Source: an uncultured Clostridia bacterium
Lineage (GTDB): Bacteria > Bacillota > Clostridia > Christensenellales > Borkfalkiaceae
NCBI GenBank assembly: GCA_944343275.1
Contig: CALVMH010000005.1
Span: 29,589-93,588 of the forward strand
Direction: 5' to 3'
DNA: 64,000 nucleotides
Shown: in pieces, positions 2,350 to 48,357 of the stretch
Numbering within the stretch: the stretch's first letter is position 1
How the letters are laid out: each line of letters opens with the position of its first letter
The notes under the pieces: model-generated
Told to the model about the DNA's origin: nothing
The model's input: the letters and a program-made list of their open reading frames with translations, nothing else
The model's database searches: none
Made by a program: the position numbers and the translations under genes

Positions 2350-2378
2350 TTGCATTTTGCGCGCGCACGAATTATAAT
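2350..2378 (+). promoter_or_regulatory. Promoter of a predicted leaderless gene
   Basis: The -35 is TTGCAT (2350-2355), followed by 17 nt and the -10 TATAAT (2373-2378). Transcription would start about 7 nt after the -10, which is the A of the ATG at 2385. No Shine-Dalgarno lies between. Confidence 0.75.
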
Positions 2379-2384
2379 AGTATT

Positions 2385-2705
2385 ATGAACATTCAGAAGA
2401 TCGCGGCGCTCCCCGCAGAGATCGCCATTCCGTCCGCAAACGCCTTTTCCGAGGCGCGCACCGTGCAAAATGCAGCCGTTTGCTCCGCCGAGGGTGCGCT
2501 GCGCATCACAAGCAGCGGCAGGTTCAAACGCTTTGCTGCCCCCGCGGAGTATATCCGCATCGAGCGCGGAAGCGGCTACATCAAATGGAAGCGCGGGGAA
2601 CTCCCCTTTGCGGAGGGCGACCTCCTCTATGCGGAGCGCGCCGATGAATACGATTTTTACGGAGCGGGAGACTTCCTCGTTCTGACAGGCAAGGAGAGAG
2701 CATGA
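2385..2705 (+). CDS. Small cupin-like protein (106 aa), predicted leaderless
   Basis: This 106-residue protein begins MNIQKIAALPAEIAIP. Its second half (YIRIERGSGYIKWKRGELPF followed by AEGDLLYAERADEYDFYG) has the alternating strand-Gly pattern of a small cupin-like beta barrel, but I cannot see a full metal-binding motif, so the fold is tentative. The ATG at 2385 sits 6 nt after a consensus -10 with no ribosome-binding site, so translation from a leaderless mRNA is expected. Its TGA overlaps the ATG of the next gene by 4 nt (ATGA), so the two are probably translationally coupled. Its role may be tied to that large membrane protein. Confidence 0.7.
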   Translation: MNIQKIAALPAEIAIPSANAFSEARTVQNAAVCSAEGALRITSSGRFKRFAAPAEYIRIERGSGYIKWKRGELPFAEGDLLYAERADEYDFYGAGDFLVLTGKERA

Positions 2706-5230
2706 GCAAACGCAGCAAGGCGCTCAGGGCGTCCGACGCCCGCAAGATCGCGTTGGAAAAGGAACTTGTCAAGCGGGGAAAGATCTTCCCCCGCACGCAC
2801 TATGCGCCCCGCACCTTTCTGGGACGCATCCTTGCCGTGACGCTCGCCTTTTTGCTGGGCATTCTGGCGGCGGTCGGCGGCATTTTCGGCGCGGGATACT
2901 ACTTCGGGTCCCGCCCCTTGAAGGACGCCCTCGGCATGTTCGGGCTAGATTACAGCGCATGGCTCACAGACACCGCCGCAGACCTCACCGTCCTCGAACT
3001 CGTGCAGCAGGTCTCGGGCGGCGGCATCGACACCCTCGGCGACATCGCACGGTATACCCCTTATGTCGACACGCTCATCGCGCAGCTCAACGAGCAGACG
3101 GCGGCGCTGGGCATGACGCTCGACGGTGAAACGCTCAAAGCCACCCCCTTCCAAGAGATGGGGAGCTACTTCTCCTCCGCCATTCAAACTGCGGAACTCG
3201 GCAAGGCGCTGGGCGTGACGGCGCAGTCGGACGCGCTGATGATCGCCCTTTGCTACGGCGCGGAAGGCACGAACGAAGAGGGCGGCGATCACACCGTTCA
3301 GGACGGCGTCATCGTCATGAACGAGGGGAAATCCCCCACCACCATTGCAGACCTCAACGAGGGCGCGGGCGACATCGTCGGAAAAGTGACGGTGGAGGCG
3401 GCGCTGGGCGTCAACGGCGCCTCCAACAGCGCCATGCGCTACCTTGCCTACGGCACCGAAGACATCAACTACACGCGCGAGGGCGAGACCGTCACCATGC
3501 TCACCGACCCCATGACGGGCAAGCTCTATCAGAAGAAGCGCCTTGCAGACCTGTCCGGCACGGACAACGTCATGGCAAATGCCTCCATTCGTGATGTCAT
3601 CACGATCGGTGATGCAACAAGCGGTCTGCTCGCCGCGATCAGCGATTGGACGGTAAACGACCTCGGCAGTCAGGCGCGCCTCGAACGGCTCAAACTCTCG
3701 CAGGTCATGACCATCGGAGCGGATGCCTCCGGCATCATGCAGGCGATGCGGGATTGGCGCATCGGGGACCTGACCGATCAGAACAAGATCAACTCCTTAA
3801 CGCTCGGAAGCGTGCTCACCCTCGACGAAAACGCGGCGCCCATCCTTCAAGCGCTTCGGAACACCCGCCTCGGAGAACTCTCGCAGGCGACGCAGGAATT
3901 GCGCCTTTCGGACATCCTCGACAAAGACGCGTTTGCGAACAATGCGCTGCTGGAAAGCATTGCAGACAGTTCGCTGGACACCCTTGCGCACGACATCCGC
4001 AGCCTCACCGTTGCGGACATCTACGGCGGCGAAATCTATTCCTACCTCGACCTCGGCGAGAACGGCAAAAATCCGACCTATCTTTCGTTCCTGCAAAACT
4101 ATCGGGAGAACGCGGAGGATGCAGCACAGCGCAAGCCCCTGTCCCCCATCACGGCGGCCGACCTTCGGGTGACGGAATCCTATTACTACGAAGGCGTGCA
4201 AGTACAGCCCGGCTGGTTCCTTTTGGACAACGGGCAGACAACAGGCAGCCCGCTGGAAGAGAGCGCCGTGCATAAGACGATGGACGGGAACGCCGTCAAA
4301 TACTACACCCGCACGGAAGTTTTCCTGACGCCGCAGTACGCATGGAAGTTCATCAACTATGCGTCGGGCGGCGCGCTTCAAGACATCACGCTCCGAACGC
4401 TCGACGAGGGCGACGCAACGATCGAGGAAAACGGCACGCCGGGAACGGAAGTTCGGGACGAAACGACGAACAAGCCCCTCTATTTTGTGACCCAGCGCCC
4501 CACCGCGCCCGCAGACGATGCGTCCGCACCCGTCACGGAAACAGTCGCCTACCCCGTTTGGCAGGACGGCAACGGTTACTTCTACCGCGAGCGCGTCCTT
4601 GAAGAGAACGGCGAACGTTCCGTTGTGCGCCGCGTCGATCTCGAACGTGCCGTCGTCGGATATATTGAATCTGACGATTCGACGCAGCTTCCGCCCGACG
4701 AAAACGGCAATGTGACGTATGAGGAGCAGTCCTATCCCGTCCGTACAAAGACGGAAAACGGCGCGGAAACGTTCTATATCTCGGTGCGCAGGGACGTCGT
4801 GCAGCGCTATTATTCGGAAAACGGCACGGGGCTTGACATTCTTGACGAAACCGCTGCCGTCACCACACGCTTCCAAGGAACGTGGACGGAAGGCGGAGTC
4901 ACCGTCGAGCGCAGCGTAGACAGGTTTTTGCACGGGACATGGTACCTCATCTTCGGCGGCGAGAAACTCGACGATACGGGCAAGATCACCGCTGTCGTCG
5001 ACAACACCGACCTGCCCATCCTCGAAATCGCAGACAAGATCGCGGCGACCTCCGGTCTCATCAACTCCACGCCCCTCTGGAAACTCTATCTGCACGGCAT
5101 GATCGCGGAGGACCCCTACCAACTGCTCCCGGGAAGCGGATTTACAGACGGCGGAAAGACTTACACCAATCTCAATCAGCTCGATGTCGGCGGCGTCATC
5201 CGCTACATCAAGCAACTGCCGACCACATAA
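2702..5230 (+). CDS. Large membrane-anchored protein with ~36-residue repeats
   Basis: This 842-aa protein is of unknown function. It has a basic cytoplasmic N-terminus (1-40), one membrane segment (about 42-69) and a long presumably extracytoplasmic part. Between residues about 295 and 430 it carries about four degenerate repeats of 34-36 residues. Two read DVITIGDATSGLLAAISDW and QVMTIGADASGIMQAMRDW; the others are DENAAPILQALRNTRLGEL and a weaker copy near 404-430. The remainder is Glu/Asp/Thr-rich and looks like beta-rich envelope sequence, with VRRVDLERAVVGY- and YYSENGTGL-type segments. No catalytic motif or sorting signal is visible. It overlaps the cupin-like gene by 4 nt and is followed by a strong terminator, so the two genes form a closed unit. 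Confidence 0.85.
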   Translation: MSKRSKALRASDARKIALEKELVKRGKIFPRTHYAPRTFLGRILAVTLAFLLGILAAVGGIFGAGYYFGSRPLKDALGMFGLDYSAWLTDTAADLTVLELVQQVSGGGIDTLGDIARYTPYVDTLIAQLNEQTAALGMTLDGETLKATPFQEMGSYFSSAIQTAELGKALGVTAQSDALMIALCYGAEGTNEEGGDHTVQDGVIVMNEGKSPTTIADLNEGAGDIVGKVTVEAALGVNGASNSAMRYLAYGTEDINYTREGETVTMLTDPMTGKLYQKKRLADLSGTDNVMANASIRDVITIGDATSGLLAAISDWTVNDLGSQARLERLKLSQVMTIGADASGIMQAMRDWRIGDLTDQNKINSLTLGSVLTLDENAAPILQALRNTRLGELSQATQELRLSDILDKDAFANNALLESIADSSLDTLAHDIRSLTVADIYGGEIYSYLDLGENGKNPTYLSFLQNYRENAEDAAQRKPLSPITAADLRVTESYYYEGVQVQPGWFLLDNGQTTGSPLEESAVHKTMDGNAVKYYTRTEVFLTPQYAWKFINYASGGALQDITLRTLDEGDATIEENGTPGTEVRDETTNKPLYFVTQRPTAPADDASAPVTETVAYPVWQDGNGYFYRERVLEENGERSVVRRVDLERAVVGYIESDDSTQLPPDENGNVTYEEQSYPVRTKTENGAETFYISVRRDVVQRYYSENGTGLDILDETAAVTTRFQGTWTEGGVTVERSVDRFLHGTWYLIFGGEKLDDTGKITAVVDNTDLPILEIADKIAATSGLINSTPLWKLYLHGMIAEDPYQLLPGSGFTDGGKTYTNLNQLDVGGVIRYIKQLPTT

Positions 5231-5245
5231 AAGACGCAACATGCA

Positions 5246-5285
5246 CAGGGCGTTCCGCTGTAAGCGGAACGCCCTGCTTTTTTCT
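5246..5285 (+). terminator. Intrinsic terminator after the repeat protein
   Basis: Perfect 14-bp stem (5246-5259 with 5263-5276), 3-nt loop, followed by a run of six T (5278-5283). Confidence 0.9.
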
Positions 5286-5324
5286 TATCGCGACGGCATA
5301 AGCCGTCCTCATCTGTCATGCCGA

Positions 5325-5774
5325 TCACCGCGGAAGCCTGCCGCGTTCGCGGCACATTGCCTCCAAAATGGCGGCGGCATCGCGGATGACGTGCGGACAG
5401 GGGCGGCGGCGGTAATATTCCTCGGTGCGTTCCTCGGGAGTGGGCGCGGTTTCGGCGGGCAGCCCTGCGTTGCGCAGCAGAGTCCCGCAGCTGACAGTCG
5501 CGTGCCGTTCACGGAACCTGCCCGCGAACTCCTGCACGAGCGCGTACATCGCCGCCTTATCGTATGCGGGGAACAGCAGCCCCAGGACGATCGCCCCGCC
5601 CGAAATGGCGCCGCACGTCTCGCGCAGGCGCCCCAGCCCGCCGCCCAGCGGCAGCGACGCCGCCATCAGCGTATCCTCGTTCGCGCCAAGGACGTCCGCG
5701 AACGCCATCACCACAGACTGCGCGCAATTACAGCCTTCCAGAAATAATTTTTCCGCACGTTCCCCTCGCGTCAT
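5325..5774 (-). CDS. C_GCAxxG_C_C family putative redox protein
   Basis: This 149-aa protein has the family-defining cysteine pattern: C15 in EGCNCAQSV, C54 in RETCGAISGG, and later cysteines in SCGTLL and RPCPHVI. These proteins are small cytoplasmic proteins thought to bind a metal or perform redox chemistry, but no member's reaction is established to my knowledge. The start has a good GGAGGG about 9 nt upstream. The gene is divergent from the phosphopantetheinyl transferase gene, with only 34 nt between the two starts, so their promoters overlap. Confidence 0.85.
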   Translation of the reverse strand: MTRGERAEKLFLEGCNCAQSVVMAFADVLGANEDTLMAASLPLGGGLGRLRETCGAISGGAIVLGLLFPAYDKAAMYALVQEFAGRFRERHATVSCGTLLRNAGLPAETAPTPEERTEEYYRRRPCPHVIRDAAAILEAMCRERGRLPR

Positions 5775-5802
5775 TTACAAATCCCTCCGATTATGATATA
5801 CT
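5774..5802 (+). promoter_or_regulatory. Promoter of a predicted leaderless gene (Sfp-like)
   Basis: The -35 is TTTACA (5774-5779), then 17 nt and TATACT (5797-5802) with an extended TG upstream. The ATG at 5809 lies 6 nt after the -10, so no leader or ribosome-binding site is possible. The -35 abuts the first codon of the divergent gene. Confidence 0.75.
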
Positions 5803-5808
5803 CTTTGC

Positions 5809-6291
5809 ATGGTCGTATGGTTCACCGATGAAAACATCACGGGCGAAGCCTTTGCGGCGCGCATCCTGACGGCGCATCACGGCATGTCCGCACCCGCCTT
5901 CTTCCGCACGGAACAGGGAAAGCCGCTTACGCAAGGCGTCTTTTTCAGCTTGTCCCACAGCCGCGGGCGCACCTTTTTTGCCGCCTGCCGCGAAGAGGTC
6001 GGGCTGGATGCGGAATGGCGCGCGCGTCCCCTGCCTGCGGCGTACTGCCGCCGCCTCACGGAGCGCGAACGGCGCGAGGACTTCTTCCGTCTGTGGACCG
6101 CAAAAGAGGCTTACGTCAAATTCTGCGGCGGCACGCTTGCGCGCATGCTCCCCTCGCTGCGATTTGAAGGCGGCGTCCTTTCGGACGGCGGCGCGCCGCT
6201 GCCCGTACACCTCGCCTTTGCGGAGGCGGACGGCTACACCGTAGCCCTGTGCACGGCATCCCCGCAGGACATCGAACTCAGACACGGTTAG
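5809..6291 (+). CDS. 4'-phosphopantetheinyl transferase, Sfp type (short)
   Basis: Transfers phosphopantetheine from CoA to a carrier protein serine. The three family motifs are all present: FSLSHS (46-51), the Mg-binding VGLDAE (64-69) and WTAKEAYVK (96-104). At 160 residues it is much shorter than Sfp (about 224), closer to compact one-domain-like members. No carrier protein, fatty-acid or NRPS gene is adjacent, so its target lies elsewhere. The start codon follows the -10 by 6 nt with no Shine-Dalgarno, so a leaderless message is predicted. The gene ends just before a nitroreductase on the other strand (convergent). Confidence 0.85.
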   Translation: MVVWFTDENITGEAFAARILTAHHGMSAPAFFRTEQGKPLTQGVFFSLSHSRGRTFFAACREEVGLDAEWRARPLPAAYCRRLTERERREDFFRLWTAKEAYVKFCGGTLARMLPSLRFEGGVLSDGGAPLPVHLAFAEADGYTVALCTASPQDIELRHG

Positions 6292-6323
6292 CCCGTGAGC
6301 CGTCTGCGCACCGCGCAGACGGC

Positions 6324-6845
6324 TTAAAATTTGTTGCGGAAGATCAGCTGCTCCGCGGGCGCGGACGCCGTATGCATGGGCGAGGGCTTCGCATCGGGCG
6401 CGGCGTGCCCCATGACGAGGAGCGCCGCAGGCTCGAACGAGGCGGGCAGCGCGAACTCCCGCCTGACGGCGGCAGGATCGAAGTGCATGACCCACGTTGT
6501 TCCGATGCCGAGCGCCGTCGCCGCGAGCATCATTTGCGTCGTGACGATGGCGGCATCCGTTTCGCCGCTCGGCTTGTTGTCAAAGCGCTCCCGCTTCCAG
6601 CAGGCGTCCTTATCATAGCACACGAGCAGCGCGCACGGTGCACCGAAGCGGCACGCGGTGCACCTGTCCAGCTTTTCAAGCGCCGCGCACGTGTTGAGAA
6701 CGAGGATGCGCTGCGGCTGTATGTTTTTTGCCGTGGGCGCCAGCATCCCCGCCTGTAAAATGCGGGCGAGCGTCTCCTCCGCAATCGGCTCCTGCGTAAA
6801 TTTGCGGACCGAAAAACGGTCTGCGATGAGCTTGAAATACTCCAT
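6324..6845 (-). CDS. Nitroreductase family protein
   Basis: This 173-aa protein has an N-terminus YFKLIADRFSVRKFTQEP, the FMN-binding SVRKF signature of nitroreductases, followed by ILQAGMLAPTAKNIQPQRI and the C-terminal ALGIGTTWVMHF. It should be a dimeric FMN-dependent NAD(P)H oxidoreductase. A Cys-rich stretch (NTCAALEKLDRCTACR and CALLVCYDKDACW) sits between residues about 50 and 85, more cysteines than usual for the family. I chose the start at 6845 because GGAGGAGG lies about 7 nt upstream; a longer start five codons earlier would have no such signal. Confidence 0.85.
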   Translation of the reverse strand: MEYFKLIADRFSVRKFTQEPIAEETLARILQAGMLAPTAKNIQPQRILVLNTCAALEKLDRCTACRFGAPCALLVCYDKDACWKRERFDNKPSGETDAAIVTTQMMLAATALGIGTTWVMHFDPAAVRREFALPASFEPAALLVMGHAAPDAKPSPMHTASAPAEQLIFRNKF

Positions 6846-6877
6846 GTCTGCCTCCTCCAACAGCGAAATGCAGCTTT

Positions 6878-7450
6878 TTACATCTCATCCAGCGTCAGGG
6901 AAAACGCGGGGATGAAGTGTTCGAAGAAATAATCGACGGCGGGCATCCGCTTTTCCGAAAGCGCCGCTTTGATGCTTTTTTCCGCCTGCACGAATTCTGA
7001 ATTGCCCGAACGCAGTTCTTCCAGACATTTGAGGTATGCGGAAAGTTTGTCCGCCGCCTTGACGAACGCATATTCCCGCGACGTTTTGTCCGCCTGCAAA
7101 TAGGGATAGATGGCGGGGCGCAGTTCCTTGGGAAGCGTCGCGGCGATCTTATCGACGGCGAGCTGTTCCACCTTGGCGTATTCGCCGTGCAGCTGCATGT
7201 TGAAATATTTGACGGGCGTGGGCATATCCCCCGTCACCACCTCGCTGACTTCATGATACAGGGCGTACAGCACGGCGCGCTCCACGTTGACGCTGCCGCC
7301 GAACACCTCGTTCTCGATGGCGCAGAGCGCATGCGTCAGCAGCGCCACCTGATGCGAATGCTCCATGATATTCTCATCCCGCGTGGAACGCATGAGCTGC
7401 CAACGGCGGATAAACTTCATCCTGTCAAGATATGCATAAAATTTTTCCAT
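6878..7450 (-). CDS. yfbR: YfbR-like 5'-deoxynucleotidase (HD superfamily)
   Basis: Over its 190 residues the protein follows E. coli YfbR closely: MKFIRRWQLMRSTRDENIMEHS, GDMPTPVKYFN, AYLKCLEELRSGNSEF and DYFFEHFIPAFSLTLDE. YfbR hydrolyses deoxyribonucleoside 5'-monophosphates and depends on a divalent metal held by an HD motif. Here the motif reads YHEVSE, so the Asp of the HD pair is Glu (H66-E67). The other histidine (H31 in EHS) and the downstream Asp in KAADKLSAY are kept. The ATG at 7450 lies 6 nt after a TATAAT with no ribosome-binding site, so a leaderless message is predicted. Confidence 0.88.
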   Translation of the reverse strand: MEKFYAYLDRMKFIRRWQLMRSTRDENIMEHSHQVALLTHALCAIENEVFGGSVNVERAVLYALYHEVSEVVTGDMPTPVKYFNMQLHGEYAKVEQLAVDKIAATLPKELRPAIYPYLQADKTSREYAFVKAADKLSAYLKCLEELRSGNSEFVQAEKSIKAALSEKRMPAVDYFFEHFIPAFSLTLDEM

Positions 7451-7456
7451 GGCACC

Positions 7457-7485
7457 ATTATACTACAAAACCTGCAAAAATTCAA
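7457..7485 (-). promoter_or_regulatory. Promoter of the leaderless yfbR-like gene
   Basis: On the minus strand the -35 TTGAAT (7485-7480), a 17-nt spacer and TATAAT (7462-7457) are followed 6 nt later by the ATG at 7450. It lies back to back with the plus-strand promoter of the TPP riboswitch (-35 at 7486-7491). Confidence 0.75.
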
Positions 7486-7514
7486 TTGACTTTCCGCAGA
7501 AAACGCACTATAAT
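7486..7514 (+). promoter_or_regulatory. Promoter of the thiT transcript
   Basis: TTGACT (7486-7491), a 17-nt spacer and TATAAT (7509-7514), about 25 nt upstream of the TPP riboswitch. Confidence 0.8.
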
Positions 7515-7537
7515 GAAAATACAATTTTTCATATATC

Positions 7538-7618
7538 CGTCGCGGGTGCCGAAAGGCTGAGATCATACCGTTTGAATCGGACAAGGTAATCCTTGCACGA
7601 AAGAACAGGAGAAGTTAG
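7538..7618 (+). promoter_or_regulatory. TPP riboswitch (THI element)
   Basis: The conserved THI-box elements are present in order: GGGTGCC, GGCTGAGATCATACC, GAATCGGACAAGGTAATCC and TTGCACG. These form the thiamine pyrophosphate aptamer. The terminator hairpin starting 10 nt downstream provides an OFF-type expression platform for the ThiT-like gene. Confidence 0.93.
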
Positions 7619-7627
7619 GTATTTTTC

Positions 7628-7654
7628 CGCCCGCATTGCCGCGGGCGTTTTTTT
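7628..7654 (+). terminator. Riboswitch-controlled terminator
   Basis: 7-bp GC stem (7628-7634 with 7641-7647) followed by seven T, between the TPP aptamer and the thiT start. It is expected to form when thiamine pyrophosphate is bound. Confidence 0.85.
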
Positions 7655-7683
7655 ACGCTTCCGACGGGTAGAAAGGAGGTCTT

Positions 7684-8952: not shown

Positions 8953-8968
8953 TCCCGTCACACATTCA

Positions 8969-8998
8969 AAACGGCTTCCCTTGCGGGAAGCCGTTTTT
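8969..8998 (+). terminator. Intrinsic terminator, probably bidirectional
   Basis: The stem AAAACGGCTTCCC / GGGAAGCCGTTTT with TTGC loop lies between the convergent thiT and rseP genes. A-rich and T-rich flanks allow use on both strands. Confidence 0.88.
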
Positions 8999-9005
8999 GG
9001 ATGCA

Positions 9006-11367: not shown

Positions 11368-11386
11368 CCGAGTTCCTCAAAACAAA

Positions 11387-25013: not shown

Positions 25014-26264
25014 CTACCTCACGAGGACGAGTTTCTTTTTGGCGCGCGTGACGGCGGTGTACAGCCACTGTCTTCCGTCCTCGAAGAACGCCGATTCGTC
25101 GAGCACGACGACAAAGTCGTACTCCGACCCCTGCGCCTTGTGGCAGGTGACGGCATAGGCAAATTCAAAGCGGCAGACGGCATCCTCCCGCCGCACCTTG
25201 AAGCGGCGCAGCATGGCGGCGTTGCCCTCATGCACCAGGAGCCCGTTGGTCAGCAGGCATGCCTTGTCGCCATAGCCGTGGAAATACCGCCCGCGCGTGA
25301 AGATGCCCGCATCGAAGGGCAGCCCCTCCAACGTATCGGGCAAAAAATCGGGCGTAAAATCGAGCTGCCCCAGCCCGTCCGCCTGCTCGTGCACGTTGCC
25401 GCACGTTCCGATGATGCCGTTGACAAGGTGAAAATCCCCCTTTTCGTCCAGCGTCTTGCTCCAATCGTTCAACGTACACACGAGCTTCTCCCCTTCGCAG
25501 GGAAGCAGGGCGTCCTCCGGGATGCCGCGCAGCCTGCGCACTTCGGCGTTGACGGCGGCGCGCGTGCGATTGGTGCCGACGATGATCTGATCGGCTTCCG
25601 AAAAGAGCTTTTCGCGCACGGCGGGCGTCAGCGCGCGGCGCGGGAGAACTTCCACGCAGCCCTCCTTTCCGTAGTGCGGCGTCCCGCCCTCCCGCACCTG
25701 CGCGGCGAGCCGCACGATGGGATCGTCCTTCTGCTGCCGCACGATCTCCCTGAGCGTGATGACGGGCATCGTCAGAAGGGAATTGTTCCCCTTCACGGGC
25801 GGAAGCTGAGCGGGGTCGCCGCAGCACAGACACTTGACGCCGAAGGACATGAGATCGCGCAGAACATCGTCCGGAACCATGCTCGTCTCGTCCAGCACGA
25901 TGAGGCGGACGGCGGCGTCGATCTTGTCCTTTTTGACAAAACGCAGAAAGCGTTCGGAGATGACTTCGCCGTTCTCGTCCACCTCGATGTCCTCTTCCCG
26001 CGTGTAGATGAGGCTGTGCACGGTGGAGGCGGGCACGCCCTGACGGATGAGCACGGACGCCGCCTTGCCCGTGGGCGCGACAAAGACGGCGCTCTCCCCC
26101 GGCACCAGACCGAGACTGCGCACGACATAGTCCACAAGAAAGGTCTTCCCCGTTCCCGCATAGCCGCACAGGACGAAGATCTGCGTATTCAGATGCAAAA
26201 ACCACTCTTCGATGAGCGCCGCCGCCTCCGACTGATCGGCGGTCAGCAGCTTTGCTTCTTCCAT
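25014..26264 (-). CDS. RecD/Dda-like superfamily 1 DNA helicase
   Basis: This 416-aa ATP-dependent helicase of the RecD/Pif1/Dda group contains Walker A GYAGTGKT (34-41), motif Ia VFVAPTGKAASVLIRQG, Walker B VLDETSMVPDD, motif III CCGDPAQLPPV, and the C-terminal AVTCHKAQGSEYDFVVVLDE and LYTAVTRAKKKLVLV. It lacks the long N-terminal domain of RecD2 (about 740 aa), so it is a compact Dda-like enzyme. Possible roles are repair or replication restart. The ATG follows the -10 by 6 nt with no ribosome-binding site, predicting a leaderless message, while the downstream kinase-like gene has a normal one. Confidence 0.88.
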   Translation of the reverse strand: MEEAKLLTADQSEAAALIEEWFLHLNTQIFVLCGYAGTGKTFLVDYVVRSLGLVPGESAVFVAPTGKAASVLIRQGVPASTVHSLIYTREEDIEVDENGEVISERFLRFVKKDKIDAAVRLIVLDETSMVPDDVLRDLMSFGVKCLCCGDPAQLPPVKGNNSLLTMPVITLREIVRQQKDDPIVRLAAQVREGGTPHYGKEGCVEVLPRRALTPAVREKLFSEADQIIVGTNRTRAAVNAEVRRLRGIPEDALLPCEGEKLVCTLNDWSKTLDEKGDFHLVNGIIGTCGNVHEQADGLGQLDFTPDFLPDTLEGLPFDAGIFTRGRYFHGYGDKACLLTNGLLVHEGNAAMLRRFKVRREDAVCRFEFAYAVTCHKAQGSEYDFVVVLDESAFFEDGRQWLYTAVTRAKKKLVLVR

Positions 26265-26270
26265 ACGTAC

Positions 26271-26299
26271 AGTATATCATATCCCGCCGCAAAACGCAA
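26271..26299 (-). promoter_or_regulatory. Promoter of the leaderless helicase gene
   Basis: Minus-strand TTGCGT (26299-26294), a 17-nt spacer and TATACT (26276-26271) with extended TG. ATG 26264 follows 6 nt later. Confidence 0.7.
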
Positions 26300-34940: not shown

Positions 34941-35648
34941 TTACGCAGGGAGCAGATGGTCCTGGACGTGAAAGAGCTTCCACGGCACGCCGTCTTCGGG
35001 AGGACCCGCGACGAACCGCATGCGCTCCTTGGTGACGGGATGGGTGAATGCAAGCGAATACGCCCACAGCGCAAGCCTGCCCTTGACGGCATATTCGCCG
35101 CCGTAACGCATGTCGCCGTAGACGGGATGCGCGATGCCCGCAAACTGCACGCGGATCTGATGGCTCCTGCCCGTGTGCAATTTGATGTCCGCAAGGGAGA
35201 GCCCGTTCCTTTGTTCGAGGATGCGGTAATCGAGCGCGGCGTATTTCGACCCGTCCGTTCCCTCGGTGGAAAGATAGACCATGTTATTGACGGCATTTTT
35301 TTTCAGCCAGCCTTCCAGCTTGCCGCTCGCAGGCTCCACCGTGCCGCCGAGCACGGCAAGATAGCGCTTTTCAAAGTCGCCCGTCTTCATCTGCTCGCTG
35401 AGCCGCGCCGCCGCCTTGCTCGTCTTGGCGAACACCATCACGCCGCCCGTGGGGCGGTCGAGGCGGTGCACCAGCCCCAGATAGACGTTGCCGGGCTTGT
35501 TGTAGGTGCGCTTGACGTAGTCCTTCAAAAGATCGAGCAGGTTCTCGTCCTTGCTCTCGTCGGGACAGGACGCAAGCCCCTGTTCCTTGACGACGACGAG
35601 CAGATGATTGTCTTCCAATAAAATTGTCGGCTCGAACGGTTCATTCAT
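34941..35648 (-). CDS. RluA-family RNA pseudouridine synthase
   Basis: This 235-aa enzyme has the catalytic Asp motif GLVHRLDRPTGGVMVFAKTS and the RluA-type LHTGRSHQIRVQFAGIAHPV and GDMRYGG segments. It isomerises uridine in rRNA or tRNA; the exact site is not readable. It has no S4 domain. The start at 35648 overlaps the upstream methyltransferase by 8 nt (ATGAATGA), with AGGAGG about 11 nt upstream, so the two RNA-modification genes are translationally coupled. Confidence 0.9.
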   Translation of the reverse strand: MNEPFEPTILLEDNHLLVVVKEQGLASCPDESKDENLLDLLKDYVKRTYNKPGNVYLGLVHRLDRPTGGVMVFAKTSKAAARLSEQMKTGDFEKRYLAVLGGTVEPASGKLEGWLKKNAVNNMVYLSTEGTDGSKYAALDYRILEQRNGLSLADIKLHTGRSHQIRVQFAGIAHPVYGDMRYGGEYAVKGRLALWAYSLAFTHPVTKERMRFVAGPPEDGVPWKLFHVQDHLLPA

Positions 35649-36504
35649 AGAGATAAAGTCCTCCTGCCCCGCAGGGAAGCGGAATGCCTTCTTCGGTCGG
35701 GAGCCCCACTTCATACGCCTCCGCCCTGCCGCCCGCGAGCGCGAGCGTCAGGATGTTGGAGAGCACGGTGGGCTGCAATCCCGTTGTGTAACTGTTGATG
35801 AGAAAGAAGAGCGGCGCATCGGACAACAGCTGCGCGCACAGCTTCACGAAGGGAAACAGCTCCGTTTCGATCTTCCACATCTCGCCGCCCGGTCCCCTGC
35901 CGTAGGAGGGCGGGTCCATGATGACGGCGTCGTATGTGTTGCCGCGGCGCAGCTCGCGCGCGACGAACTTCTTGCAGTCGTCCACGATGTAACGGATGCC
36001 CCGTTCGATGCCCGAGAGGCACGCGTTTTCGCCCGCACGCTCCACCATGCCCTTGGCGGCATCCACATGGGTGACTTCCGCCCCCGCCCTGGCGAGCGCA
36101 ACGCTCGCGCCGCCTGTATAGGCAAAGAGGTTGAGCACCTTTACCCTGCGCCCCGCCTGCACCGCACGGCGGACGATGGCGCCCGTTCTCTCCCAATTGA
36201 CCGCCTGTTCGGGAAAGAGCCCCGTGTGCTTGAAGCCCATGGGCATCACCTTGAAGGTGAGGTCCTTATAGCCGATATTCCAGAAGGGCGGAAGCTGCCG
36301 CTTATACTCCCACGCGCCGCCGCCCTTTTCGCTGCGGCGGTAAACGGCGTCCGTCCCCGGATAGGCAAAGAGGTCGCGCCGGGCGCTCCAGATGACCTGC
36401 GGGTCGGGACGCAGCAGGAGATAGTCCCCCCACCGTTCGAGTTTATAGCCGTCGCCCGTGGCGAGCACGGAAAAATCCTTCCAACCGTCTGCAATGCAAA
36501 GCAT
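35641..36504 (-). CDS. Class I SAM-dependent methyltransferase (RlmI/PF10672-like)
   Basis: This 287-aa protein contains LNLFAYTGGASVALARAGAE (SAM-binding motif I), VTHVDAAKGMVERAGENA, VDDCKKFVARELRRG and the catalytic-type VIMDPPSYGRGPGGEMWKIE. These match rRNA cytosine-5 methyltransferase relatives of RlmI/RlmK. A GLFPEQAVNW segment precedes motif I. The true start is the ATG at 36504 (MLCIADGWKDF): the longer frame extends into a terminator. That ATG lies 6 nt after TATAAT with no ribosome-binding site, so a leaderless message is predicted. It is coupled to the pseudouridine synthase. Confidence 0.88.
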   Translation of the reverse strand: MLCIADGWKDFSVLATGDGYKLERWGDYLLLRPDPQVIWSARRDLFAYPGTDAVYRRSEKGGGAWEYKRQLPPFWNIGYKDLTFKVMPMGFKHTGLFPEQAVNWERTGAIVRRAVQAGRRVKVLNLFAYTGGASVALARAGAEVTHVDAAKGMVERAGENACLSGIERGIRYIVDDCKKFVARELRRGNTYDAVIMDPPSYGRGPGGEMWKIETELFPFVKLCAQLLSDAPLFFLINSYTTGLQPTVLSNILTLALAGGRAEAYEVGLPTEEGIPLPCGAGGLYLYE

Positions 36505-36510
36505 AAGGAT

Positions 36511-36539
36511 ATTATAGTAAAAAACGGCGGTTTTGTAAA
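36511..36539 (-). promoter_or_regulatory. Promoter of the leaderless methyltransferase gene
   Basis: Minus-strand TTTACA (36539-36534), a 17-nt spacer and TATAAT (36516-36511), with ATG 36504 six nt later. The -35 lies mostly in the loop of the upstream gene's terminator. Confidence 0.78.
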
Positions 36540-40743: not shown

Positions 40744-40746
40744 GGC

Positions 40747-42396: not shown

Positions 42397-42534
42397 AACT
42401 CTCTTCCCAACGTATAATGTGCCGAAACAAACAAGTCCATTATACCGAGAACAGAGCGCTTTGTCACCCGATTTTCAATAAATTGAAATAAGTTTTTTGT
42501 GCAGGACGAGCGCCGCCTTCCCCTGCGCGTGCGG

Positions 42535-43191
42535 TCACTGATATTCCTTGTGCACACCCGTCACGAGGTACTTTGCCCATTCGCTGACGTTGACGGCGTA
42601 ATCGCCGATCTTTTCGAGATACTTGGCGATCATCAGAAGCTGCACCGCCTGGTCCGCGACGGAGGCGTCGGTGGCGATGCGGTCGATGAGTTCCTGCTTG
42701 ACCTCGTTGAACAGCGCGTCCATTTCGTCGTCGGCATGGATGACCATGTCCGCGCCGCCCACGCTTTCCCCCAAAAAAGATTCGACGCTCTGATGGATCA
42801 TCGCCACCGCAAGATCGCCCATGCGCGCGATGTGTTCGGGTTCTTTGAAGAGCTTGTCGTCGGGGAACTGCCGCACGATCTCGCCGATGTCCGCCGCCTG
42901 ATCGCCGATGCGCTCGACGTCGGTAATGACTTTGAGCGCCGTCGTCACCTTCACGAGGTCCTTTGCGACGGGCTGCTGCTTCAAAAGGATGCGCATGCAC
43001 TTCTTTTCGATGGCGATTTCGAGGTCGTCCACCTCCCTGTCCGTCTCCGCAACGGAGGCGCCGAGCGCCCTGTCCAGCGTCTTCAAGGCGCTGACGGCGT
43101 CCGCGATCATCCGTTCCGTGACGGTGCACATCCTGCCGAGCGTCTCGTGCAGGTCGTCGAGTTCTTCGTCAAAATATTTTCTGGGTGCCAT
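42535..43191 (-). CDS. phoU: Phosphate signalling protein PhoU
   Basis: The 218-aa all-helical protein contains two PhoU repeats: EELDDLHETLGRMCTVTERM and ERIGDQAADIGEIVRQFPDD, and in the second half DEMDALFNEVKQELIDRIAT and LEKIGDYAVNVSEWAKYLVT. The E-R-x-x-D-x-A metal motif occurs in both. It links Pst transport to the PhoR kinase. GAAGGAGC precedes the ATG at 43191; in-frame codons upstream lack homology. The order pstB-phoU is standard. The 118-nt gap to pstB contains a GCGGCATTTTGCCGC hairpin. Confidence 0.94.
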   Translation of the reverse strand: MAPRKYFDEELDDLHETLGRMCTVTERMIADAVSALKTLDRALGASVAETDREVDDLEIAIEKKCMRILLKQQPVAKDLVKVTTALKVITDVERIGDQAADIGEIVRQFPDDKLFKEPEHIARMGDLAVAMIHQSVESFLGESVGGADMVIHADDEMDALFNEVKQELIDRIATDASVADQAVQLLMIAKYLEKIGDYAVNVSEWAKYLVTGVHKEYQ

Positions 43192-43309
43192 AATTGCTCC
43201 TTCCGAAATCACTTTTTTGTCAGCCGTCCGAGCGGGCGGCTGCTGCTTCAAGCGGCAAAATGCCGCAAAAGTTCCGTTTGCCCCGCCGCCCGCCCCTCTT
43301 GCCCCGGTT

Positions 43310-44173
43310 TTAACCGAATCTGCCCGTGATGTAGCGCTCCGTCTCGGGATGGGAAGGCGCGGAGAACACCTGCTCGGTGTCCCCCATCTCGATCATCTCG
43401 CCCAGCAGGAAAAACGCCGTCTTATCCGAGATGCGCGCCGCCTGCTGCATGTTGTGCGTGACCATGACGATGGTGACGTCCTTTTTTAGCTCCTCGCACA
43501 GCTCCTCGATCTTGCCCGTGGAGATGGGGTCGAGCGCGGAAGTCGGCTCGTCCATCAGAAGGATCTGCGGCCCGACCGCGAGCGCGCGCGCAATGCAGAG
43601 GCGCTGCTGCTGTCCGCCCGAAAGCCCCAAAGCCGACTTGTTGAGGCGGTCCTTGAGTTCATCCCACATGGCAGCCTGCTTTAAGGAGCGCTCGACGATC
43701 TCGTCCAGTTCCCCCTTCTTGCGGATGCCGAAGGTGCGGGGGCCGTAGGCGATGTTGTCGTACACGCTCATCGGGAAGGGATTGGGTTTCTGGAACACCA
43801 TGCCCACGTTCTTGCGCAGCGCCGAGAGGTCCACGCCCCTGTCGTAAATGTTCAGCCCGCCGATGATGATCTCCCCCACCACGCGGCAGCCCTCCACCAG
43901 GTCGTTCATGCGGTTGAGCGTCTTGATGAGGGTGGACTTGCCGCAGCCCGAGGGACCGATCATCGCCGTGATCTGATATTTGGGCATCTCCATGTTGATC
44001 TTTTTGAGCGCCTGGAACTCACCGTAAAACAGGTCGAGGTCCCTGACCGTGATGGCGAGTTCGCCGGAGAAGTCAAAGATATCAAGAGAATCTGACTTCT
44101 TTTTCTTTTCATGCCGATCAACAGTTTCTGGCTGAGGCTGCTCTATCGTATTTTTTTTCTGAAATAATCCCAT
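43310..44173 (-). CDS. pstB: Phosphate ABC transporter ATPase
   Basis: The 287-aa ATPase has the PstB hallmarks [20 protein letters not shown], Walker [44 protein letters not shown], signature [17 protein letters not shown] and Walker [13 protein letters not shown]. The first about 35 residues (Lys/Glu-rich, [20 protein letters not shown]) are an extension and are encoded by AT-richer DNA than the rest. The start at 44173 has AAGGAA upstream and lies 10 nt after the pstCA stop. Confidence 0.96.
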
Positions 44174-44183
44174 TTTGTATTCC

Positions 44184-46064
44184 TTACCTCTTTTTCTTAA
44201 CACGCCTTTGAATTAGATAAACACAGAAGTTAAGCAATGCCGTTATAATCAGCAAAATAACAGCCGTTGCATATGCTTGGTCATAGCCAAGGCCACTAGA
44301 CGGTTCTGCCCAACACATATACAGGAACACCGTAAGCGTACTTGCCATGTTGCCCGGATTAGCCGCAGCCCCTATCGTAGTAATCAACATGCCTGATGTG
44401 TAGATGAGTGCCGCCGACTCGCCGACGATGCGCCCGATGGCAAGGATCGCCGCCGTGGCAATGCCAGGAAACGCCGAGGGGAGCACAATCTTGAAGATTG
44501 TGCGAACCTTGCTGGCTCCCAAGCCGTAACTTGCCTCGCGCAATGATACAGGCACAGCAATTAATGCTTCTTCTGTCGATCGAATGATGGTCGGAAGAAC
44601 AACCAGAACCATCGTAAACGAACCGGCCCAAACGGAATAACCGAAAAGCTCTACAAAAAGTAAGTTGCCAAAAAGACCAAATACAATAGACGGAACACCG
44701 GAGAGCGTATCAACAAACGTGCGGATAACCTTGACAAGCTTGCTGCCAGGTTTTGCATATTCCACCATAAAAATTGCTGCACCAATGCCGAGCGGAAGCG
44801 AAATGGCAAGCGTAATGAGAATGGTATATGCTGTGGAAATAAAAGCAGGAACCAGCGACGGGTGCTGATAGGTTGATTCTCCGAATAGGAAATCCCACTT
44901 CAGATTGGGAATGCCGTTAATCAATATAAACAGAATCAACGCTGCTAGAACCACTACAACAACGAATGCCAGCACAATTGCAACGTATTTAAGAATTTCA
45001 GGAATGAGTCCCTTTTTCTTGTATACAACGGCAGTTTTTTCGCCATTGAGCACCTTGTTCCCACGTTTGCCCTTGAATTCTTTTGGAACAAGATTAATCG
45101 AAAAATTAATGATCAGCACAAGTACGAGCAAAACAAAGCCCGTAGCAAACAGCGCGCTGAACAATGTATTCCCCTGCGAGGCATCTGCAAATTCCATAGC
45201 GATATTGGTTGTCAGTGTACGGATGGGCTGAAACAATGAGGTTGGGAAGCTGACACTGCCACCCGAAACCATTGCAACAGCCATCGTCTCGCCCACGGCT
45301 CTGCCGATGCCCAGGATGAGCGCCGAAATAATACCCGAGCGTGCCGCGGGGAATACCACACGGAACACCGCCTGCGCCTTGGTGTTGCCCATGGCGAGAG
45401 CGCCCTCAAAGTAGTGCTCGGGAACAGCTTCCAGGGCGTTCTTTGCAAGCGAGGTTACTGTCGGAATGATCATGATGGCAAGCACCAAAGAACTTGCCAG
45501 AGCACCTTTCCCAATATAATACACATCCCCGCCACGAATCAGATTGAGAATAACAGCTACACCGAAGTAACCGAATACAACAGACGGAATTCCCGCAAGT
45601 AATTTGATAACCTGATCGAAGAAGGTGCGCAGATTGATCTTATTGAAACCATTCACAACCTTTTGCAAAAACTTGTTCTGACCATTGTAGCGCAGATGAA
45701 ATTTATCCGGACACCAGAACACGAGGAAAATCGCCGTAAAGATGCCAATGGTTCCGCCAATGAGAATAGCTCCCAATGTAACAACGATAGAACTAACAAG
45801 CATTGGCAGAATGCCATATTCATCGGAATTATGATTCCAGCGTGTTCCGAACAGAAACTGAAAAACACCCACCTCACGGAATGCCGGGATCGAGGCATAT
45901 AAAATGTAACCGATGATCCCGAAGACGGCAAGGATAGAAAGGGATGCGCAGACAAAAAACAGATATTTTGCCATGCCGTCTTTAAAACGCGTCACATTGA
46001 TATCCCCTCTCTTTCCGTGAGCGGGAGCCGGATTTTCTGGACTGTTTGCAGCAGTTTGTACCAT
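44184..46064 (-). CDS. Fused phosphate ABC permease PstC-PstA
   Basis: This 626-aa protein contains both permease subunits of the Pst transporter in one chain. The PstC half (about 1-320) has [35 protein letters not shown] and [21 protein letters not shown] basic linker ([16 protein letters not shown]) leads to the PstA half (about 345-626), which has [60 protein letters not shown] and AALIYTSG. Normally these are two genes of about 300 codons each. About twelve membrane helices are expected. The DNA is notably lower in GC than the flanking genes, with high-GC patches. Confidence 0.93.
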
Positions 46065-46146
46065 TGTTTTTCTCCGTGCAAATTCCGCCGAGGAATATTG
46101 ATCCCCGACGGAACTGTATCATAATTTTTGTATAAAAACGTTTGCG

Positions 46147-47052
46147 TCAGGCAATCTGGATAGGCGTACCATTCATGTACAAGTTATAGAGCTGATCGAA
46201 TGTAACATTCGTCAAACGCACGTCCTTCTGCACAATAACCGCAATTCCATCGAGTGCGATCGTGTGCGCCTCAAGCTGACTGGTGTAAGACTCGCCAAGT
46301 TCTCTGGAAATCATACCCATATCATTATTTCCAGCAACCGCATCCGTCTCACCTTGACCAGAACCCGAGCCAGACAGATTTATCGTAAAGTTTTTGCCGG
46401 GATTGGCTTCTTGGAATGCAGGAATAATAAAGTCACGCATCAAAGGCTGCACAGAGGTCGAACCGGTAAGCGTGAGCGTCGTTTCATCTCCCTCATAAGG
46501 TACATAAGCCACGGGATTTTCCGCCTGCCCGATATAGTCTTCATTGACAAGCGCCTGTCCCTCAGTACTCTCAATAAAAGAAATGAAGTTCTTTGCAAGG
46601 TCGCTCAGATCGTCGTAACTTTTATAAACAAGGTTAAAAGGACGGGAAAGTTTATAATCGCCAGATTCGATGTTGGCAACTGTCGCATCGACGCCATTGA
46701 CCTGTACTGCCTTAATCTTATCTGTGTTCGCCGCAACTGCTCCCAAAGAAATATAGCCAAGCGATTGAGGATTGGCAGCAACATCCGCAATAACCGTTCC
46801 CGTTTCGTTGGAATACTGCACATTTTCAGCAAAATCAAGACCGTCATCATTACGCGCCTCGTCAATAGACTTACCATCGCTATTAACGACTAACTCATTG
46901 AACGCTCCATACGTGCCTGAGCTGGCCGGACGCGAAAACGCAACTGTGATTTGCGTGATGCTCGCACCATCCGTTCCGCACCCTGCCATCAAGCCCACTG
47001 CCGTGACGGACATTGCAGCCGCCAAACCAATCGCAAGAATCTTCTTCTTCAT
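46147..47052 (-). CDS. pstS: Phosphate-binding lipoprotein PstS, circularly permuted
   Basis: This 301-aa lipoprotein (lipobox LMAGC, C25) captures phosphate for the Pst transporter. The domain order is unusual. The region that is normally C-terminal comes first: SRPASSGTYGAF (40-51), ANPQSLGYISLGAV, YKLSRPFNLVYKS and FISFIESTEGQALVNEDYIG. The normally N-terminal part follows: LTGSTSVQPLMRDFIIPAF (195-213), SGSGSGQGETDAV, DMGMISREL and HTIALDGIAVIVQKD. All phosphate-contact motifs are present, so it should function. It is first in the pst unit, with Pho-box-like repeats upstream. Confidence 0.92.
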   Translation of the reverse strand: MKKKILAIGLAAAMSVTAVGLMAGCGTDGASITQITVAFSRPASSGTYGAFNELVVNSDGKSIDEARNDDGLDFAENVQYSNETGTVIADVAANPQSLGYISLGAVAANTDKIKAVQVNGVDATVANIESGDYKLSRPFNLVYKSYDDLSDLAKNFISFIESTEGQALVNEDYIGQAENPVAYVPYEGDETTLTLTGSTSVQPLMRDFIIPAFQEANPGKNFTINLSGSGSGQGETDAVAGNNDMGMISRELGESYTSQLEAHTIALDGIAVIVQKDVRLTNVTFDQLYNLYMNGTPIQIA

Positions 47053-47100
47053 TGTCTTGTTACTCCTTTTCTTCTTTCCTTTTTTTTGTTTTGTGCCTAT

Positions 47101-47174
47101 ATCATATCACGCAGTTGTAAATATCCCCGCACAAATTTGTCACGAAGTTGTAAATTCTTTTGCCGATTTGTAAA
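47101..47174 (-). promoter_or_regulatory. Candidate Pho-box promoter of pstS
   Basis: On the minus strand TTTACA occurs at 47154-47149, a GTGACA at 47143-47138 (11 bp away) and TTTACA again at 47121-47116 (22 bp further); another lies at 47174-47169. A -10 TATGAT follows at 47106-47101. Direct TT(A/T)ACA-like repeats in 11-bp phase ahead of a -10 are how Bacillus PhoP boxes look. Confidence 0.55.
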
Positions 47175-47187
47175 AAATTTTTTACAA
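47168..47187. repeat. 20-bp AT palindrome upstream of the Pho box
   Basis: A perfect palindrome with half site TTGTAAAAAA, sharing the TGTAAA core with the Pho-box-like repeats. It may be an additional regulator site or part of the same array. Confidence 0.45.
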
Positions 47188-47268
47188 CTTGTCCGCCTTT
47201 TATTCCTTATATTTATTATGCGCACAAAACAAACCGAAATACCCGCCAATCGAAACTGCAACCTCTTG

Positions 47269-47420
47269 CCCCCCTTAACACTTGTTTTAAGGGGGGATGT
47301 CCGCAGGACAGGGGAGATTGTGCTCTCCACATTCTGCGAGGGGATTCTTCGCTGCGGGCTACGCCCTCCGCTCTGAATGACGTGGTACCTTCACGTAGCC
47401 TTCCCCCTCGGGGGAAGGCT
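47269..47420. repeat. Intergenic hairpin array, possible repeat-element remnant
   Basis: No gene is present. Three hairpins occur in 150 nt: 10-bp arms at 47269-47278/47287-47296, a small one at 47298-47310, and 10-bp arms at 47398-47407/47410-47419. Between them lies CTTCGCTGCGGGCTACGCCC and GCTCTGAATGACG, which resembles dispersed extragenic repeats of Clostridia. Confidence 0.4.
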
Positions 47421-47467
47421 AACATACGCATTCGCCCCCAAGGGGAAGCCTTTCCAAATGCTGACAG

Positions 47468-47505
47468 GGAACGCCGCCCGACACATTTGCGTCGGGCGGC
47501 GTTCC
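47468..47505 (-). terminator. Hairpin after the nucleoside hydrolase gene
   Basis: Perfect 15-bp GC-rich stem with an 8-nt loop 14 nt beyond the stop codon. No T run follows on the minus strand. Confidence 0.65.
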
Positions 47506-47518
47506 AAATATAATCGAT

Positions 47519-48322
47519 TTACAATTCCATGATCTCGCCGTAGGGCTTGTTCAGAATATAGCGCGCGACGGTGAGCAGATTGCCGTCGCGGTCGGTTTTC
47601 TCCTCTAGCGCAAACCAATCGGGATGGCGCAGCGCCTTGACTGCGATGTCGTCCCAAAGGTAGCACCCCTTTTCGCCCGAGACGAAGGTCATCTCCCGCG
47701 CCCGCCGCGCGATCGCGGCAAGCAGTCCGCCGCCCGCGGGCGGAGCATTCTGAATGTTCAAAAGAGGGTGGCGGCAGGTATCCATCGTCACGGCGGTGTG
47801 CGCGCACATGCGCACGGCGGCGGTAAACGCCTCCTTATTCAGCGCATGGTTGAATTCGTAGCCGTGGAAATTGGGTTGTTCGGCAATGTTCCCGCCCATA
47901 AACACGAACCTGCGCGGCGTTTTGCGCTGCAGCATGCGCGGAACGAGCGTCATGGGGCCGAGGCTCAAAAGGTCGTACTCCCCCTCAAAGTCTGCCAGCC
48001 ACGCGGCAAACGGGGCAACGGGCGACCGAAAACCGTCCGCATCCGCGAACAGGTCCCCCATTCCGTCGCCGCCGTGAATGGTCTTGAGAAATTCGCAGGG
48101 CTGCGCCTCCTGCGTCGTGTCCACGACGGTGAGCGGCACCGTTCCGAACGGAAGGTGCGCCGCAAGTTTTTTGGCGTTTTCCAGCGACACTTCGGGCGGC
48201 ACGTTCCCCCCGACGGCAACGAGCACCGCCTCCGAATAGCCGTCCTGCGCGGCGTGCGCAAGCGCGTCCACCGTCGCCGCGGCGTCGTCCAGACCGTAAT
48301 CACAAAAAAGAACGAGTTTCAT
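47519..48322 (-). CDS. Nucleoside hydrolase (inosine-uridine preferring family)
   Basis: The 267-aa protein resembles the IUNH family that cleaves the N-glycosidic bond of ribonucleosides using a Ca ion held by Asp residues. Motifs: N-terminal FCDYGLDDAAA (family DxDxGxDDA, with the first Asp position altered), TIHGGDGMGD, LSLGPMTLVPRML, FVFMGGNIAEQPN, GYEFNHALNKEA and the late LWDDIAV. The first Asp of the usual DTDxGxDD reads C-D, so metal binding may differ. The ATG follows a TATAAT by 6 nt with only a too-close GGGA, so a leaderless message is predicted. Confidence 0.8.
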   Translation of the reverse strand: MKLVLFCDYGLDDAAATVDALAHAAQDGYSEAVLVAVGGNVPPEVSLENAKKLAAHLPFGTVPLTVVDTTQEAQPCEFLKTIHGGDGMGDLFADADGFRSPVAPFAAWLADFEGEYDLLSLGPMTLVPRMLQRKTPRRFVFMGGNIAEQPNFHGYEFNHALNKEAFTAAVRMCAHTAVTMDTCRHPLLNIQNAPPAGGGLLAAIARRAREMTFVSGEKGCYLWDDIAVKALRHPDWFALEEKTDRDGNLLTVARYILNKPYGEIMEL

Positions 48323-48328
48323 ATTCCC

Positions 48329-48357
48329 ATTATAGCACGATGCGCCCCTTTTTACAA
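48329..48357 (-). promoter_or_regulatory. Promoter of the leaderless nucleoside hydrolase gene
   Basis: Minus-strand TTGTAA (48357-48352), a 17-nt spacer and TATAAT (48334-48329), with ATG 48322 six nt later. The -35 lies in the loop of a 9-bp hairpin (48338-48346 with 48360-48368) that follows asnS. Confidence 0.72.

What the first reader, a model, noticed from the sequence alone, without database searches (positions are those of the whole stretch)
2350..48357. Six genes with an identical leaderless architecture: -35, 17 nt, -10, 6 nt, ATG
Starts at 2385 (+), 5809 (+), 7450 (-), 26264 (-), 36504 (-) and 48322 (-) all show a sigma-A-like -35, a spacer of exactly 17 nt, a -10 (TATAAT or TATACT) and then exactly 6 nt before the ATG, with no usable Shine-Dalgarno. 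The first transcribed base would be the A of the ATG. Other genes nearby (glnN, aspS, asnA, tpiA, rpsF) have the same promoter spacing but normal leaders with ribosome-binding sites. Leaderless mRNAs are well known in Actinobacteria, Deinococcus and archaea but are thought uncommon in Bacillota. Six in 64 kb suggests a regular second initiation mode in this lineage, used mostly by solitary accessory genes (PPTase, nucleotidase, helicase, methyltransferase, nucleoside hydrolase).
Basis: partly seen in the sequence, partly recalled or inferred. Interest (0 to 1): 0.8.

Follow-up and report, generated by a model that had tools for sequence, protein, structure and literature searches.

The report
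Leaderless genes in a gut Clostridium relative
In an uncultured gut bacterium of the Clostridia, dozens of genes seem to place the start codon exactly where copying of the gene into RNA begins, so that their messages lack the usual ribosome landing site; this is known from other bacteria but looks regular and conserved in this lineage.

Summary
In detail: all six starts carry -35, 17 nt, TATAAT/TATACT, 6 nt, ATG (chance 0.01-0.07 per window). The genome, nearest to Candidatus Gallimonas, has 26 strict copies, against 4 with a 12-nt gap and 6 with GTG; 21 of 26 open ORFs of at least 70 aa. 98 of 159 orthologs keep the 6-nt gap; in helicase the start slides over 21 nt together with the -10. The base before the ATG is a pyrimidine in 26 of 26 (SD-led starts 320 of 480). 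Leaderless transcription is very likely, for an estimated 45-65 genes (2-4%). Several families of the order show the excess, others do not; a phylum sample shows no general excess. In YfbR the leaderless state needs at least three changes on the tree. No RNA data exist. New member of a known kind.

The parts
2350..2705 (+). -35 TTGCAT, 17 nt, -10 TATAAT (2373-2378), N6, ATG at 2385; 106-aa ORF without Pfam match
   Evidence: 14 of 21 orthologs keep N6, own included
5774..6291 (+). -35 TTTACA, 17 nt, -10 TATACT preceded by TGn, N6, ATG at 5809; 4'-phosphopantetheinyl transferase superfamily (PF01648)
   Evidence: 27 of 30 orthologs keep N6 (25 with at most one mismatch in the -10), down to about 36% protein identity
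6878..7485 (-). -35 TTGAAT, 17 nt, -10 TATAAT, N6, ATG at 7450; YfbR-like 5'-deoxynucleotidase (PF12917)
   Evidence: 3 of 30 orthologs N6 and 3 N7; many relatives have the promoter followed by a short leader with an SD
25014..26299 (-). -35 TTGCGT, 17 nt, -10 TATACT preceded by TGn, N6, ATG at 26264; helicase with AAA_30 and UvrD_C_2 domains
   Evidence: 23 of 30 orthologs N6 and 5 N7
35641..36539 (-). -35 TTTACA, 17 nt, -10 TATAAT, N6, ATG at 36504; SAM-dependent methyltransferase (PF10672)
   Evidence: 20 of 30 orthologs N6 and 6 N7
47519..48357 (-). -35 TTGTAA, 17 nt, -10 TATAAT preceded by TGn, N6, ATG at 48322; inosine-uridine nucleoside hydrolase (PF01156)
   Evidence: 11 of 18 orthologs N6
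54513..54553 (+). seventh promoter of the same form; ATG followed at once by TGA, in the leader of a phosphoglucomutase gene (SD-led ATG at 54608); possibly chance

Best explanation
These genes are transcribed from housekeeping (sigma-A type) promoters whose start point is the A of the start codon, giving 5'-triphosphate-AUG mRNAs without a leader or Shine-Dalgarno sequence. A ribosome carrying initiator tRNA then binds the 5'-terminal AUG. Shown by sequence: the promoter, the exact 6-nt gap (7 in a minority of orthologs), the preference for ATG, the pyrimidine at -1 and the conservation. Inferred: the transcription start itself. Taken from work on other bacteria: the ribosome step. In at least one gene (YfbR) leadered and leaderless forms occur in close relatives, which suggests repeated loss of a short SD leader.
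For: 1) Own genome: 26 TTG-N20-TATAAT-N6-ATG, reversed control 0, N12 gap 4, N6-GTG 6. 2) Of 82 strong promoters in 464 kb, 10 have ATG at gap 6 and at most 3 at any other gap from 0 to 25. 3) 21 of 26 strict hits open ORFs of at least 70 aa, 18 of 21 with a Pfam match. 4) 98 of 159 orthologs (own six included) keep N6; helicase starts lie from -15 to +6 nt of the window's start while the -10 moves along (28 of 30 with N6 or N7). 5) -1 pyrimidine in 26 of 26 strict hits and 98 of 98 N6 orthologs (related sequences), against 320 of 480 SD-led starts; in the sample 22 of 24 at gap 6. 6) ORF of at least 80 codons: own 20 of 26, G513 16 of 20, G539 14 of 18, G410 8 of 10; outside the enriched families G431 1 of 10, G335 2 of 10. 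7) Ten of the 27 own proteins compared have a leaderless relative among the strict hits of G513, G539 or G410, among them RsmG, a recombinase, Nth type, UvrC, ThiF, M24, the hydrolase and an 85-aa protein.
Against: No RNA data for this uncultured lineage. Some transcripts could start 1-3 nt away or at an upstream promoter (not searched for). In YfbR most relatives are SD-led. Allowing two mismatches in the -10, the gap-6 count (31) no longer stands out clearly from other gaps (10-31). The 0-of-112 SD count among N6/N7 orthologs is largely forced by geometry. In two other families several genomes have 7-9 N6-GTG hits (G412, G428, G540, G546), so the AUG restriction may not hold across the order. 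One genome of another genus in the family, G438, shows no excess (4 against 4).
Confidence: 0.9

Rival explanations
1. Chance alignment: in any set of promoters some ATGs fall 6 nt after the -10.
For: 5 of the 26 strict hits do not open an ORF of 70 aa, about the number at the control gap (4). In G335 2 of 10 and in G431 1 of 10 N6 hits open an ORF of 80 codons.
Against: Window 7 against 0.01-0.07 expected; genome 26 against 4 and 6; conservation in orthologs.
Confidence: 0.03
2. The AT-rich hexamer just upstream of the ATG is a translation signal (an SD-free, leadered start), not a promoter, and transcription begins further upstream.
For: AT-rich upstream signals are described as non-SD ribosome sites in the FCB group (PMC9581028 passages).
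Against: A -35 sits 17 nt away and is kept in many orthologs. A TGn before the -10, a promoter feature (recalled), is present in 23 of 23 helicase, 25 of 27 PPTase and 11 of 11 hydrolase N6 orthologs, though in only 1 of 20 methyltransferase, 0 of 14 2385-ORF and 1 of 3 YfbR ones. Leadered neighbours use the same promoter form.
Confidence: 0.04
3. The true protein starts lie downstream, with the ATG inside a short 5' leader.
For: Start choice from sequence alone can be wrong; the first residues of helicase and PPTase align poorly in many orthologs.
Against: Within the genus YfbR aligns from residue 1 in 24 of 24 loci, and the methyltransferase and hydrolase from residue 1 in nearly all listed full-length matches. 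In helicase the ATG moves with the -10.
Confidence: 0.03

Closest known systems
Leaderless mRNAs of streptococci (S. agalactiae, S. pyogenes)
   Same: Bacillota; in S. agalactiae all leaderless transcripts have AUG and 90% start at its A; a minority class beside leadered genes; 81% of the S. pyogenes ones are leaderless in S. agalactiae too (PMC4448216, PMC6431027; passages read).
   Different: There measured by RNA-seq at 8-9% of mRNAs; here inferred from sequence, estimated at 2-4% of genes, in Clostridia and in a window of about 60% GC.
TA-led genes of Zheng et al. 2011 (PMC3160421)
   Same: -10-like box at a fixed distance before the start codon; 56 of 209 Firmicutes genomes had them (mean 4.2%), concentrated in Lactobacillales and Mycoplasma (passages and one section read).
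   Different: The string 'clostrid' does not occur in its main text, so this lineage is not discussed there.
Leaderless genes of Actinobacteria and Deinococcus
   Same: Promoter placed so that transcription starts at the start codon.
   Different: A much larger share there (about 19% and 39% on average in PMC3160421), with weak TAnnnT boxes in high-GC genomes; here near-consensus TATAAT and no clear GTG class in the own genome.
Potentially leaderless genes in C. difficile and C. phytofermentans
   Same: Same class, Clostridia.
   Different: 15 genes in C. difficile (PMC7438776); 4% of InterS TSS in C. phytofermentans, generally with an RBS and another upstream start (PMC5171806). Here no SD at the six sites; second promoters were not searched for.

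Membership tests
Leaderless mRNA class (bacterial) | Transcription starts at or within a few nt of the start codon | not testable with these tools
   No RNA data; inferred from promoter position and -1 pyrimidine
Leaderless mRNA class (bacterial) | Promoter -10 fixed about 6-7 nt upstream of the start codon, above chance | tested here: met
Leaderless mRNA class (bacterial) | Start codon AUG rather than GUG/UUG | tested here: met
   Own genome ATG 26 against GTG 6; no GTG or TTG peak at gap 6 in 464 kb. Some genomes of other families have 7-9 GTG hits
Leaderless mRNA class (bacterial) | No Shine-Dalgarno sequence | tested here: met
   read directly at all six sites; of 46 orthologs without the fixed -10, 33 have an SD-like motif
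Leaderless mRNA class (bacterial) | Initiation by 70S ribosomes, dependence on IF2, antagonism by IF3 | not testable with these tools
   reported in the review PMC4611024 (passages)
Sigma-A promoter | TTGACA-like and TATAAT-like boxes 16-18 nt apart | tested here: met
   all six at 17 nt; two of the six -35 boxes match TTGACA at only 3 of 6 positions

The most novel reading that the evidence does not exclude
Leaderless initiation is a distinct, selected programme in this order: certain DNA-repair, recombination and RNA-modification genes (UvrC, RuvC, Nth type, recombinase, helicase, RsmG, PrmA, a TilS-like PP-loop protein) are held leaderless so that they stay translated when SD-dependent initiation is limited, and leader loss recurs because of it. 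No enrichment of such genes was tested.
Probability: 0.12. Interest if true: 0.75.

Novelty: new member of a known kind. Interest (0 to 1): 0.48.

Why it matters
It extends leaderless translation, in a regular and conserved form, to a large group of uncultured gut Clostridia. Gene finders that rely on SD sites may place these starts wrongly. Leadered and leaderless versions of the same gene in close relatives (YfbR) give a natural series for asking how and why a gene loses its leader.

Tried and rejected
Rejected: G335, a class-mate with 18 strict N6 hits, as a second leaderless lineage outside the order. 2 of its 10 printed hits open ORFs of 80 codons, and its N12 count is 8. Other genomes of the phylum sample with 8-9 N6 hits were not followed up.

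Rejected: small N6 ORFs as regulatory leader peptides. The five non-gene hits (18, 1, 42, 29 and 35 codons) number about what the N12 control gives (4). The tyrosine-rich 42-codon frame lies in a low-complexity stretch upstream of what looks like dnaN (gene name by eye).

Led nowhere: paper searches for leaderless with Christensenellales or Borkfalkia (0 papers) and one on gut bacteria (228 papers, ten listed, 0 occurrences of 'leaderless gene' in those ten). The GeneMarkS-2 paper is not held. The anti-SD of the 16S RNA, ribosomal protein S1 and IF3 were not examined.

Limits of the counts. The 464 kb sample is the window plus 20 stretches of 20 kb from 5 other contigs. 'Convincing' (15 of 20) means a -35 with at most 2 mismatches to TTGACA, or, for 2385 and 26264 with 3, conservation in orthologs. 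The SD-led baseline (480) is any SD word 4-9 nt before an ATG with 80 open codons and contains chance cases. Ortholog starts were chosen with a preference for an ATG that has a -10 at gap 6. Ortholog sets include the own gene and hold the best 30 loci at most: methyltransferase 30 of 66 matches, PPTase 30 of 46, helicase 30 of 50, YfbR 30 of 39 (6 of them from other families), hydrolase 18 of 18, 2385 ORF 21 of 21. One ortholog with a truncated upstream was dropped. In the YfbR tree 20 of 81 rows have unknown state because the script did not find their start. The ORF test used 20 of the 25 printed hits of G513, 18 of 18 of G539, 10 of 10 of G410, 10 of 10 of G431 and the 10 printed of 18 of G335; the printed hits of G480, G498 and G460 were not fetched, and no genome of the other enriched families was tested that way. 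The phylum comparison uses the tallies of genomes with at least one hit; summed counts were not made.
Full report
WHAT IS THERE. The six sites are as described. TATAMT-N6-ATG occurs 7 times in the window against 0.07 expected, and with the -35 at 17 nt 7 times against 0.01. The seventh, at 54536, puts ATG-TGA in the leader of a phosphoglucomutase gene. Three leadered neighbours (glutamine synthetase III, aspS, asnA) have the same promoter form but 29-33 nt between -10 and ATG.

THE GENOME. The window is part of a 1.98 Mb genome in 92 contigs, 92% complete; window GC is 59.6%. Its YfbR protein is 92% identical to that of an uncultured Clostridia bacterium and 89% to that of Candidatus Gallimonas caecicola. 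NCBI places that genus in Clostridia, incertae sedis; the names Borkfalkiaceae and Christensenellales for its GTDB family and order are recalled.

GENOME-WIDE TEST. TTG-N20-TATAAT-N6-ATG is found 26 times, 0 in the reversed control. The same promoter with a 12-nt gap gives 4, and N6 with GTG gives 6. In a 464 kb sample, 82 strong promoters have ATG at gap 6 ten times and at most three times at any other gap from 0 to 25; a second, broad rise from gap 26 on (6 and 5 at gaps 26 and 27) fits SD-led genes. With one mismatch allowed in the -10 and an ORF of at least 80 codons, gap 6 has 20 sites against a mean of about 6 and a maximum of 11 at the other gaps from 0 to 24; with two mismatches it has 31 and no longer stands out clearly. 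I judge 15 of the 20 convincing: 6 in the window and 9 in the other 400 kb. Extrapolated, that is about 45 (without the window) to 65 (with it) genes per genome, or 2-4% if there are about 1,900 genes (gene number assumed).

THE GENES. 21 of the 26 strict hits open ORFs of at least 70 aa; 18 of the 21 match Pfam. They include a PLP decarboxylase, ThiF, PrmA, UvrC, GidB/RsmG, EPSP synthase, a nucleotidyltransferase with HD domain, an HhH-GPD (endonuclease III type) protein, peptidase M24 and AraC and HTH_3 regulators. The looser scan adds RuvC, a phage-integrase-family recombinase and a pyridine nucleotide-disulphide oxidoreductase. They are not mainly accessory.

EVIDENCE FOR A TRANSCRIPTION START AT THE ATG. 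The base at -1 is a pyrimidine in 26 of 26 strict hits, against 320 of 480 SD-led starts in the sample; in the looser sample scan it is 22 of 24 at gap 6 and lower at most, not all, other gaps. Pyrimidine at -1 with purine at +1 is the usual make-up of a bacterial start point (recalled; a paper search for it failed). All 98 orthologs that keep N6 also have it (related sequences, not independent), as do 38 of 38 hits that open ORFs of 80 codons in G513, G539 and G410.

CONSERVATION. Orthologs keep -35, -10 and gap. Counts with N6, own gene included: PPTase 27 of 30, helicase 23 of 30, methyltransferase 20 of 30, 2385 ORF 14 of 21, hydrolase 11 of 18, YfbR 3 of 30; one of the three YfbR cases, L152, is from another family of the order. 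A gap of 7 occurs in 6 methyltransferase, 5 helicase, 3 YfbR and 1 2385-ORF orthologs. In helicase the start codon lies anywhere from -15 to +6 nt relative to the window's start, and the -10 moves with it (28 of 30). Of 46 orthologs without a fixed -10, 33 have an SD-like motif; several of the hydrolase and 2385 ORF cases look like genes inside an operon (my reading, not tested). That none of 112 N6/N7 orthologs has an SD is largely forced by geometry.

SWITCHING. Many YfbR relatives have the promoter followed by a short leader with an SD; the nearest relative, L047, differs from the window by such a leader. On a tree of 81 proteins the leaderless state (N6 or N7) needs at least three changes, three being forced by well-supported branches (54 leadered, 7 leaderless, 20 unknown). 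Three changes could in principle include losses.

DISTRIBUTION. In 151 genomes of the order N6 totals 1368, N12 411 and N6-GTG 300 (counts copied by hand). Six genomes of the genus average 23.3 N6 against 2.8 N12; three of other genera in the family 10.7 against 3.0, one of them (G438) without excess. Families f147, f172, f156, f164, f158, f168 and f144 are enriched 4.4 to 9.5 fold; f171, f173, f145, f153 and f163 are not. In f156 and f172 four genomes have 7-9 GTG hits. In 398 genomes across the phylum 299 have an N6 hit and 307 an N12 hit; the own genome is the highest with 26, then G335 with 18, then 9 or fewer. The ORF test separates the groups: 16 of 20 (G513), 14 of 18 (G539) and 8 of 10 (G410) in the family, against 1 of 10 (G431, f145) and 2 of 10 (G335). 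So raw N6 counts outside the enriched families are mostly not gene starts in the two genomes tested. Several genes are leaderless in more than one genome: RsmG and the recombinase in three, Nth type, UvrC, ThiF, M24, HTH_3, the hydrolase and an 85-aa protein in at least two.

COMPARISON. The features match the leaderless class of streptococci: AUG, start at the A, conserved gene by gene, a minority beside leadered genes (PMC4448216, PMC6431027; passages). The AUG requirement and IF2/IF3 roles are as reviewed in PMC4611024 (passages). Zheng et al. (PMC3160421; passages and one section) found such genes in 56 of 209 Firmicutes genomes. In the two clostridial TSS maps whose passages I read they are few. 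Searches found no paper on leaderless genes under the two group names tried (open-licence library only).

VERDICT. What is new, as far as these searches go, is its regular, conserved use in part of an uncultured clostridial order, and a clear case of repeated switching between leadered and leaderless forms.

Noticed in passing
window 54513-54608: A strict promoter places ATG-TGA at the predicted 5' end of the phosphoglucomutase mRNA; a start-stop element or chance.
   Followed up: partly
L015:1500-1650: Between rsmG and what looks like dnaN lie DnaA-box-like motifs followed by TAC/TAT triplets, resembling the unwinding part of an oriC (motif recalled, not tested).
   Followed up: no
L018:1536-1790 and L300: An 85-aa protein without Pfam match is leaderless here and, as a 65% identical relative, in another genus.
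   Followed up: partly
window 2702-5230: An 842-aa ORF overlapping the end of the 2385 ORF by 4 nt has no NCBIfam or Pfam match.
   Followed up: no
L047 upstream of YfbR, against window 7450: The nearest relative has nearly the same promoter but a short SD leader: a pair for studying leader loss.
   Followed up: partly
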